Below, in pieces: positions 57,234-62,358 of a DNA stretch of 64,000 nt. The notes under the pieces are model-generated. The model was not told the DNA's origin. It did no database searches and saw only the letters and a program-made list of their open reading frames with translations. Numbering within the stretch: position 1 is the first letter of the stretch; every line of letters begins with the position of its first letter. This DNA comes from Alphaproteobacteria bacterium (GTDB lineage Bacteria; Pseudomonadota; Alphaproteobacteria; RF32; CAG-239). The stretch is taken from NCBI GenBank assembly GCA_015062285.1, contig SUUY01000001.1:296880-360879 (forward strand), read 5' to 3'. Made by a program: the position numbers and the translations under genes.

Positions 57234-57282
57234 TCCACGATTAAAATCCGTTTTACGGGTTACTAATCGTAAAAATTAAAAC

Positions 57283-57340
57283 AGAGAGAAAATTCATGTA
57301 CTGATTTGTACACTAGGATTTTCTCTCTTTTTATTTTTAC
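57283..57340 (+). terminator. Terminator after tuf (hairpin B, related to hairpin A)
   Basis: Stem AGAGAGAAAAT/ATTTTCTCTCT, with an inner TGTAC/GTACA pairing and a T-rich tail. The region ATTCATGTACTG(T/A)TTTGTA is shared with the hairpin upstream of tuf. Confidence 0.8.
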
Positions 57341-57475
57341 TTCTATTAACCTCGTATAACGAATTTTAATGATAGTGCTAATAATGAGATAGAGGTTATT
57401 TTTGTATTTTTGTCTAAAAAGATGTTTACTTAATGTTAAAAATATGGTAGTATTGTTTTCATAAGGAGAAGAAAG

Positions 57476-57586
<111 letters not shown>

Positions 57587-57605
57587 GAAATATTTTTTAA
57601 TCAAG

Positions 57606-61868: not shown

Positions 61869-61944
61869 GGGAGTATAGCTCAGTTGGTAGAGCATCGGTC
61901 TCCAAAACCGAGGGTCGTGAGTTCGAATCTTACTGCTCCTGCCA
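61869..61944 (+). tRNA. tRNA-Trp (CCA anticodon)
   Basis: A complete 76-base cloverleaf. The acceptor stem GGGAGTA pairs with TGCTCCT (two G-U pairs), the D arm is GCTCAGTTGGTAGAGC, the anticodon arm has CGGTCTCCAAAACCG with anticodon CCA, and the T arm GTGAGTTCGAATCTTAC has a normal TTCGAAT loop. The CCA end is encoded. It would read UGG with tryptophan. Its 3' end is part of the 105-bp repeat below. Confidence 0.97.
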
Positions 61945-62030
61945 CTAAATAAGGTCGCTTTAAGGCGGCCTTTTTTAGTGGCAAAAAGTAGAGTTAGGTT
62001 CGAACTCACGATAAAGTGAGTTTGACTACC
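61926..62030. repeat. 105-bp direct repeat, copy 1 (tRNA-Trp 3' end and terminator)
   Basis: It runs from the tRNA T arm through the CCA end and terminator to a palindrome ACTCACGATAAAGTGAGT. It is repeated at 62107-62211 with two mismatches, an offset of 181 bases. It includes the reverse complement of the tRNA T arm (TTCGAACTCACGA), a dispersed inverted copy. Confidence 0.95.
61942..61983. terminator. Terminator of tRNA-Trp
   Basis: An outer stem GCCACTAAA/TTTAGTGGC encloses GGTCGCTT/AAGGCGGCC and a run of T. The same structure is repeated inside the second copy at 62123-62164. Confidence 0.88.
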
Positions 62031-62106
62031 AGCGAGAGCGATACGGGGGTATCGCGGTTGGCAAATAGCCAACGAGCGCCAGTGCAACTCAAGTGTAACG
62101 CAGAGT

Positions 62107-62211
62107 AATCTTACTGCTCCTGCCACTAAATAAGGTCGCTTTAAGGCGGCCTTTTTTAGTGGCAAAAAGTAGAGTTAGGTTCGAACTCACGAGGAAGTGA
62201 GTTTGACTACC
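62107..62211. repeat. 105-bp direct repeat, copy 2 (partial tRNA-Trp)
   Basis: It contains the last 19 bases of the tRNA (AATCTTACTGCTCCTGCCA) without a 5' half, so it is not a functional tRNA. Two mismatches from copy 1. The 76 bases between copies contain hairpins GTTGGC/GCCAAC and CGATAC/GTATCG. This is the pattern left by a partial tandem duplication or by an integrated element's attachment-site remnant. Confidence 0.95.
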
Positions 62212-62358
62212 GGCTATTTATCATCAAAGTTGAGGTAAAAGGTAAAAAATGCTTCATTGAAATGGTTTATTTTTAGAATGAAAAAATTATATTGTATTTT
62301 TCTTAAATTGACGGATAATTAAGAGTTGTAAATTTGGTAATTAAATAGGGTAAGAATA

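What the first reader, a model, noticed from the sequence alone, without database searches (positions are those of the whole stretch)
61926..62211. Duplicated tRNA-Trp 3' end with terminator, 181-bp spacing
A 105-bp direct repeat reproduces the last 19 bases of the tRNA plus its terminator and a palindrome, and includes an inverted copy of the T-arm sequence. This is the usual signature of site-specific integration (attL/attR) after element loss, or of slippage. The 76 intervening bases contain two perfect hairpins but no gene.
Basis: seen in the sequence. Interest (0 to 1): 0.55.

Follow-up and report, generated by a model that had tools for sequence, protein, structure and literature searches.

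The report
tRNA-tailored structured repeat cassettes
The odd repeat behind this tRNA gene is one copy of a widespread, apparently undescribed kind of small genetic insert in gut bacteria that sits behind many different tRNA genes, carries copied pieces of the tRNA it sits behind, and has a conserved folded core.

Summary
In detail: tRNA-Trp (61869-61944) is followed by a 181-bp unit and a truncated second copy. It is not a one-off att scar. A covariance model of the unit's core gives 16 matches in the window genome and at least one in 141 of 152 genomes of its family; outside the family it hit 3 of 385 sampled class genomes and none of 398 sampled phylum genomes (12 candidates scored per genome). 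In 98 tRNA+unit loci of 24 tRNA kinds, most units carry three pieces of their own tRNA: 3' end, T-stem 5' half and an inverted T-arm. Between them lies an ~80-nt core of covarying hairpins with no Rfam family. Species of one genus carry or lack the insert at tRNA-Trp: 184 and 201 bp, flanks 58/60 and 59/60. Best reading: a gene-less mobile cassette entering at the T-loop and restoring the tRNA 3' end. The enzyme, and how tRNA-specific flanks arise, are unknown; DUF6538 tyrosine integrases beside some of these tRNAs are candidates.

The parts
61869..61944 (+). tRNA-Trp(CCA), host gene; T-stem 5' half 61917-61921, T-loop 61922-61928
   Evidence: ARAGORN; Rfam
61926..62106 (+). Unit 1 (181 bp): from tRNA position 58 to the end of the core; insertion point 61925|61926
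   Evidence: direct repeat; comparison with relatives
61926..61944 (+). tRNA 3' piece (58-76, CCA) that completes the functional tRNA; recurs at 62107-62125
61947..61976 (+). Terminator-like hairpin with T run, at the tip of a long palindrome
   Evidence: sequence; inverted repeats; fold
61977..62011 (+). Imperfect inverted copy of the tRNA 3' end and T-arm
   Evidence: I4; for relatives
62016..62025 (+). Second direct copy of the T-stem 5' half and T-loop start (GTGAGTTTGA)
   Evidence: sequence
62026..62106 (+). Structured core (model R1 hit 62016-62088, 86.5 bits)
62038..62055 (+). Core hairpin P2 (GCGATAC-GGGG-GTATCGC), the conserved signature
62057..62073 (+). Core hairpin P3 (GTTGGC-AAATA-GCCAAC), variable sequence, conserved pairing
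62107..62212 (+). Truncated unit 2: 3' tRNA piece, terminator, inverted copy, T-stem copy and first core bases, then unrelated sequence

Best explanation
The feature is one copy of a family of small, gene-less (non-autonomous) mobile cassettes tailored to tRNA genes. SHOWN: a unit lies between tRNA position 57 and a second copy of positions 58-76. It brings a 3' tRNA piece that completes the tRNA, usually a terminator-like hairpin, an inverted T-arm copy, a second T-stem 5' half, and a core with covarying hairpins, and it is present or absent at the same tRNA in related species. INFERRED: it enters by site-specific recombination at the T-loop, with the tRNA restored each time. The core, folded as RNA or as a single DNA strand, together with the tailored T-arm copies is what the enzyme recognises. 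The enzyme acts in trans, most likely one of the DUF6538 tyrosine integrases that sit beside some of the same tRNA genes. NOT EXPLAINED: how the inverted and 5' T-arm copies come to match each new tRNA; copying from the target during insertion is the simplest guess.
For: Core copies lie behind tRNA ends on the same strand: of 88 motif matches in 80 of the 100 stretches of the named-genome scan, 55 lie within 110 nt after a tRNA, 13 at 111-500 (tandem copies among them), 3 farther, 17 with none; random positions 55 of 4400. Own-tRNA match in 98 loci against other tRNAs scanned the same way: T-stem 5-mer perfect 69/98 vs 2.7%; 3' 19-mer at least 17 matches 69/98 vs 0.4%; inverted 10-mer at least 9 matches 65/98 vs 2.7%. 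Insertion polymorphism: L301 and L305 against the empty L309, 184 and 201 bp, flanks 58/60 and 59/60. Cores at least 0.94 identical on different tRNA kinds (5 pairs) have flanks at 0.56 on average, no more than any two kinds (0.57), while the same kind averages 0.71; the window genome's Pro-TGG and Arg-TCT units are such a pair (0.94/0.56). Core structure: 94.1% of cells paired, covariation 0.473 vs shuffled 0.151 and at most 0.069 for slid controls, 100 distinct rows; on the unfitted MAFFT alignment of 21 rows 0.332 vs 0.113. Copy number 0-19 per family genome, lower bounds. DUF6538 integrases lie behind tRNA-Gly and tRNA-Asn in the window genome and tRNA-Trp in G017.
Against: No unit was seen to carry an integrase, and no recombinase was shown to act on it. 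The two ends of the integrase island at tRNA-Gly, read by eye, lack the core and the inverted T-arm. Ordinary integrase action does not create an inverted, tRNA-specific copy. Seven named-scan loci with one gene order all have a unit at tRNA-Met, which fits retention or function as well as mobility. Empty sites could be deletions between the 19-bp repeats. In the window both terminators resemble the one at the empty Trp site of G003, and in 32 of 68 loci with a good right-hand copy the two terminators agree (27 clearly differ), so some terminators may be host-derived. The match to the own tRNA is not perfect in about a third of loci (own T-stem in the top 5% for only 58 of 98). Pairing in the core does not show that RNA is made.
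Confidence: 0.5

Rival explanations
1. RNA- or replication-templated insertion: the tRNA transcript or its DNA strand folds back at the terminator hairpin, is extended along the tRNA 3' end to about position 46, and switches to a core-bearing template, so the tRNA-specific inverted and direct copies are made afresh from the target at each insertion.
For: By eye in the loci printed the inverted copy tends to start soon after the terminator T run and to end near tRNA position 46-48. In folds the stretch forms one long palindrome tipped by the terminator. Cores are shared between tRNA kinds while flanks are not.
Against: No reverse transcriptase domain PF00078 in the window genome; 35 of 136 family genomes have one, and G026 and G008, with 19 and 18 core matches, have none. 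In 27 of 68 loci the two terminators clearly differ.
Confidence: 0.2
2. A functional RNA, not a mobile element: the unit acts in cis on its tRNA, for example in 3'-end formation or read-through, and its tRNA-matching pieces co-evolve with the tRNA because they pair with it.
For: Strong covariation with G-U pairs on the tRNA strand; in most of 18 folds of tRNA plus unit the inverted copy pairs with the tRNA's own T-arm and the 5' acceptor strand often pairs with the unit's 3' copy (L207 is an exception); P2 starts 85-101 nt after the tRNA in 91 of 98 loci.
Against: Patchy presence at tRNA-Trp within one genus, tandem arrays and truncated copies, right-hand tRNA copy poor (at most 12 of 19) in 15 of 98 loci, related cores on many tRNA kinds.
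Confidence: 0.2
3. One reading: attL/attR left after loss of an ordinary tRNA-targeting island, or slippage.
For: 3' tRNA duplication; an integrase island does sit at tRNA-Gly in the window genome and an integrase gene behind tRNA-Trp in G017.
Against: The segment between the repeats is a conserved structured core in 141 of 152 family genomes, not an arbitrary scar.
Confidence: 0.07

Closest known systems
tRNA-targeting integrative elements and their integrase-less remnants (att-flanked, cis-mobilisable; from general knowledge)
   Same: enter at a tRNA 3' end, restore the tRNA, leave a 3' tRNA copy at the far end, can stack
   Different: unit is 157-192 bp in 93 of 98 loci, has no gene in the window copy, a conserved folded core, and tRNA-specific inverted and T-stem copies; one core family on 24 tRNA kinds
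Tycheposons (Prochlorococcus; Methylophilaceae, PMC10872708, passages read)
   Same: tRNA-bordered mobile islands
   Different: those carry a tyrosine recombinase and 4-200 kb of cargo according to PMC10872708; the window unit carries no gene
Additive islands marked by repeats of the last 20 bp of tRNA-Lys(ctt) in Methylopumilus (PMC10872708, passages read)
   Same: recurring tRNA 3' ends mark stacked insertions
   Different: no structured core or inverted T-arm copy is described in the passages seen
Integron cassettes with attC sites (from general knowledge)
   Same: small cassettes in tandem, with a site that folds as a single strand and varies in sequence but not in pairing
   Different: site here is bounded by tRNA T-arm halves; no integron integrase or attC consensus was tested
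Bacterial palindromic repeats such as Rickettsia palindromic elements, REP/BIME (from general knowledge)
   Same: short, repeated, palindromic, non-coding
   Different: linked to the 3' side of tRNA genes on the same strand and matched to the host tRNA
IS110-type bridge RNA (from general knowledge)
   Same: a structured RNA of similar length next to target-like sequences is one conceivable function of the core
   Different: no such transposase was searched for; only the resemblance in layout is noted

Membership tests
tRNA-targeting integrative element / att-flanked remnant | 3' tRNA end duplicated at both borders, tRNA left intact | tested here: met
   (3' 19-mer at least 17 matches in 69 of 98)
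tRNA-targeting integrative element / att-flanked remnant | empty site in relatives | tested here: met
tRNA-targeting integrative element / att-flanked remnant | encodes or demonstrably uses a site-specific recombinase | tested here: not met
   no gene in the window unit; use in trans could not be tested
tRNA-targeting integrative element / att-flanked remnant | excised circular form | not testable with these tools
   needs reads or PCR
Tycheposon | tyrosine recombinase plus cargo of 4-200 kb | tested here: not met
   unit of 157-192 bp in 93 of 98 loci, no gene in the window unit; definition from passages of PMC10872708
Known Rfam RNA family | match at or above gathering score | tested here: not met
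   only tRNA matches in the window and 13 other loci scanned; at permissive E-values, the best non-tRNA match over the window unit has 28.3 bits against a cut-off of 130
Retroelement | reverse transcriptase in cis or in the genome | tested here: not met
   none in the window genome; 35 of 136 family genomes
Phage or plasmid sequence | core found on phage or plasmid records | tested here: not met
   IMG/VR exact patterns: 1 chance match inside an ORF and 0; plasmids none with a composite query; phages 1 record that looks like a bacterial contig
Integron cassette | attC consensus and integron integrase | not tested
   comparison from general knowledge only
IS110 / bridge RNA | DEDD transposase with adjacent non-coding RNA | not tested
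   no search spent on it

The most novel reading that the evidence does not exclude
A new kind of mobile nucleic-acid element of bacteria, seen so far mainly in gut Alphaproteobacteria. A folded ~80-nt core is copied into the T-loop context of almost any tRNA gene, and the insertion process itself writes tRNA-specific direct and inverted flanks from the target, so one core can parasitise two dozen tRNA kinds without breaking them.
Probability: 0.25. Interest if true: 0.95.

Novelty: categorically new. Interest (0 to 1): 0.8.

Why it matters
If mobile, it would be one of the smallest tRNA-targeted mobile elements and one that adapts its flanks to each target, which no system known to me does. 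If it is instead a functional RNA, it would be a large class of tRNA-linked RNA domains absent from Rfam 15. Either way, 141 of 152 genomes of one bacterial family carry it. It makes testable how elements hit essential tRNA genes without harm, and how arrays of 3' tRNA ends arise.

Tried and rejected
Reverse-transcriptase-driven spread as a general rule: rejected for lack of RT genes in copy-rich genomes. Phage or plasmid carriage: not found; the one phage-collection hit looks like a bacterial contig with tRNA-Met. A strict rule that exactly one T-loop copy is mutated: not upheld (19 and 18 against 12 and 8 in the four main classes). A model-free test of the junction helix P1 was weak (mean longest helix 3.44 own vs 2.93 foreign, 96 units; tandem G-A pairs not counted). 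A first control for T-stem matching was biased because the site was chosen for its own match; one search repeats it fairly. Recurrent genes near units are mostly housekeeping synteny, and no shared recombinase stood out (74 of the 80 loci L157-L236 plus 8 others; six chance loci L157, L201, L204, L208, L218 and L223 left out). Cargo beside displaced units (type I RM subunit, DNA methylase, HTH, MORN) varies from locus to locus.

Limits: the 98 loci were picked by a regular expression for P2 at 50-140 nt after an ARAGORN tRNA among loci fetched for carrying the core or lying at a tRNA, so diverged units are missed, related species recur, and occupancy cannot be estimated from them. The genome search scored at most 32 first-look candidates per genome and 12, with stricter filters, so copy numbers are lower bounds and absence outside the family is only suggestive. 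Alignment A4 was fitted to the R1 model. L302 against L300, L307 and L315 aligned 34/60, no better than the unrelated L299 (33/60), so I do not count it.

Literature: searches returned nothing describing such an element (listings only); passages of PMC8040213, PMC12306168 and PMC10872708 were seen. PMC8040213 reports 3161 candidate RNAs whose supplements I could not open, so a bare structure listing there is not excluded.

Full report
1. The observation. The tRNA-Trp gene at 61869-61944 is followed by a direct repeat, 61926-62033 and 62107-62214, 108 nt, 97% identical, spacing 181. It begins at tRNA position 58 in the T-loop. It contains the last 19 tRNA bases, a terminator-like hairpin, an imperfect inverted copy of the tRNA 3' end (90% complementary over 20 nt in the T-arm), and a second T-stem 5' half. 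The stretch between holds two perfect hairpins and no gene. The second copy is truncated at about 62212.

2. It is one of many. A search of the window genome with the 289-bp stretch found seven partial matches elsewhere, all close behind tRNA genes. Pattern GACTACMARCNA gave 13 hits against 0 for the reversed control; one lies inside a coding gene and is chance. Model R1 gives 16 matches, of which I saw 15 by place: behind tRNA-Arg(CCT) (three full, one truncated), Pro(CGG) (one, and a second about 1.9 kb on), Arg(TCT) (two), Pro(TGG), Lys(CTT), Lys(TTT) (two), Pro(GGG) and Trp, and one alone with a tRNA-Gly-like 3' end about 22 kb from tRNA-Gly, which is followed by an integrase gene.

3. Distribution. 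In 94 relatives a strict pattern hit 18 genomes, all in the window's family, control 0. Model R1 hit 141 of 152 family genomes, 16 of 16 genera, 0 to 19 matches each; 8 of 385 class genomes, 5 of them in the family, the others G338 and G508 (one family) and G340 (the G340 match lies at a contig start and its layout was not checked). Model R2 hit only the window genome among 398 of the phylum at E 1e-4. Only 32 or 12 candidates per genome were scored, so these are lower bounds. A pattern scan of named genomes stopped at 100 stretches; 89 bear titles of Alphaproteobacteria (Rhodospirillales, Azospirillum, Candidatus Enterousia and Rickettsiales among them) or 'uncultured proteobacterium', many from gut or rumen; 11 bear other titles, mostly chance as far as examined. 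Enterousia belongs to the reduced-genome order Rs-D84 according to passages of PMC12306168. The same layout was seen behind tRNA-Val in G508 and tRNA-Glu in G338 and, twice in tandem, behind tRNA-Arg in Candidatus Enterousia intestinigallinarum (L178).

4. Anatomy across 98 tRNA+unit loci and 24 tRNA kinds. In order: tRNA; usually a terminator-like hairpin; inverted 3' tRNA end with a short loop; T-stem 5' half; core; tRNA positions 58-76 again. P2 starts 85-101 nt after the tRNA in 91 of 98 and the unit is 157-192 bp in 93 of 98. With controls scanned the same way, own-tRNA matches exceed foreign ones: T-stem 5-mer perfect in 69/98 vs 2.7%, 3' 19-mer at least 17 in 69/98 vs 0.4%, inverted 10-mer at least 9 in 65/98 vs 2.7%; the own tRNA is in the top 5% in 58, 86 and 79 loci. 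Collapsed to 45 distinct tRNA-kind/T-stem combinations: 31, 33 and 26. In one search, which aligned a longer inverted region, the own tRNA was strictly best in 59 of 98.

5. The core is a structured nucleic acid. On the MAFFT alignment A3 (21 rows) 91.2% of cells pair, covariation 0.332 vs 0.113 shuffled. On A4 (100 distinct rows, fitted to R1) 94.1% pair, covariation 0.473 vs 0.151, slid controls at most 0.069, and 12 of 14 pairs have double changes. G-U at the base of P3 (61 rows G-U, 17 G-C, 19 unpaired) points to the tRNA-sense strand. Rfam gave no family other than tRNA in the window and 13 further loci. A separate helix P1 test was weak.

6. Insertion polymorphism. In G003 the same neighbourhood (tRNA-Trp then cation efflux gene) has no unit; the terminator there resembles both terminators in the window. 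Thirty tRNA-Trp loci of the genus were fetched: 9 with a full unit directly after the tRNA, 1 remnant, 14 none, 2 cut by contig ends, 4 with only a 5' tRNA half (L323 from its search row). L309 (empty) matches the sequence after the unit in L301 and L305 at 58/60 and 59/60 over inserts of 184 and 201 bp (the latter holds an extra partial repeat), and there the terminator right after the tRNA differs from the one in L309 (by eye). Over 68 loci with a good right-hand copy, the two terminators agree in 32 and clearly differ in 27. So many units bring their own terminator; the window's case is ambiguous.

7. Cores move between tRNAs. Five pairs on different tRNA kinds have cores at least 0.94 identical; their flanks average 0.56, the level of any two kinds (0.57, sd 0.06), while the same kind averages 0.71. 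The window genome's neighbours Pro(TGG) and Arg(TCT) are such a pair. At tRNA-Trp in the genus, unlike cores share Trp-like flanks (by eye). Counter-evidence: ten of the 80 examined named-scan loci have a unit within 101 nt of tRNA-Met(CAT), and seven of them (L167, L168, L179, L188, L211, L219, L235) share one gene order, so retention also occurs.

8. Candidate enzyme. The window genome has four PF00589 proteins; the two long ones carry DUF6538 and sit downstream of tRNA-Gly and tRNA-Asn. In G017 a DUF6538 protein follows tRNA-Trp (its PF00589 match is below the cut-off and the ORF runs off the locus), and in G025 a serine recombinase does. None was shown to act on units. PF00078 is absent from the window genome and present in 35 of 136 family genomes.

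9. Mechanism. I commit to a trans-mobilised, tRNA-restoring cassette (0.5). The tailored inverted and T-stem copies are the strongest unexplained fact, and they keep target-templated insertion (0.2) and a cis-acting RNA (0.2) alive. (18 loci picked) suggests that a read-through transcript could in most cases pair the inverted copy with the tRNA's own T-arm and often the 5' acceptor strand with the distal copy; L207 is an exception, and this is prediction only.

10. Novelty. Not in Rfam 15 in the loci scanned, not found in the phage and plasmid collections by the searches named, and not found in the paper searches named under Tried and rejected. Subscription papers and supplements were not searchable.

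Noticed in passing
L093 (G005:C5) after tRNA-Pro: A second class of unit with an inverted T-arm but a different, P2-less core flanks a ~5-kb restriction-modification island (methylase, AIPR protein).
   Followed up: partly
G000 C6:2487-24857 (L097, L095, L057): About 22 kb from tRNA-Gly with a DUF6538 tyrosine integrase and, judged by eye, glycosyltransferases; HipAB-like genes next to a Gly-type unit at its far end. C6:7001-9999 was not read.
   Followed up: partly
L300, L303, L307, L313, L314, L315, L326, within about 150 nt after tRNA-Trp: A conserved sequence with a hairpin like GTCCGTGTGA...TTACACGGAC follows the terminator in several species without a unit; a further possible structured element.
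   Followed up: no
L324, L325, L327: Only the first ~40 bases of tRNA-Trp, broken near the anticodon, beside a partly shared sequence; perhaps another element entering at the anticodon.
   Followed up: no
MT837473.1 (L297): Record filed as Bacteriophage sp. holds, judged by eye, MnmA-like and DsbD-like ORFs and a tRNA-Met with a unit; it looks like a bacterial contig.
   Followed up: partly
L207: Contig of a MAG labelled Lactobacillaceae carries a typical unit at tRNA-Val; perhaps mis-binned. L253 (Bacillota) and L254 (Lachnospiraceae) also hold the motif and were not examined.
   Followed up: no
window 57263-57604 -: ORF with a CVCVCV run, i.e. a dinucleotide repeat downstream of the EF-Tu gene.
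   Followed up: no
L308 (G025): A large serine recombinase gene runs up to tRNA-Trp from the opposite strand.
   Followed up: partly
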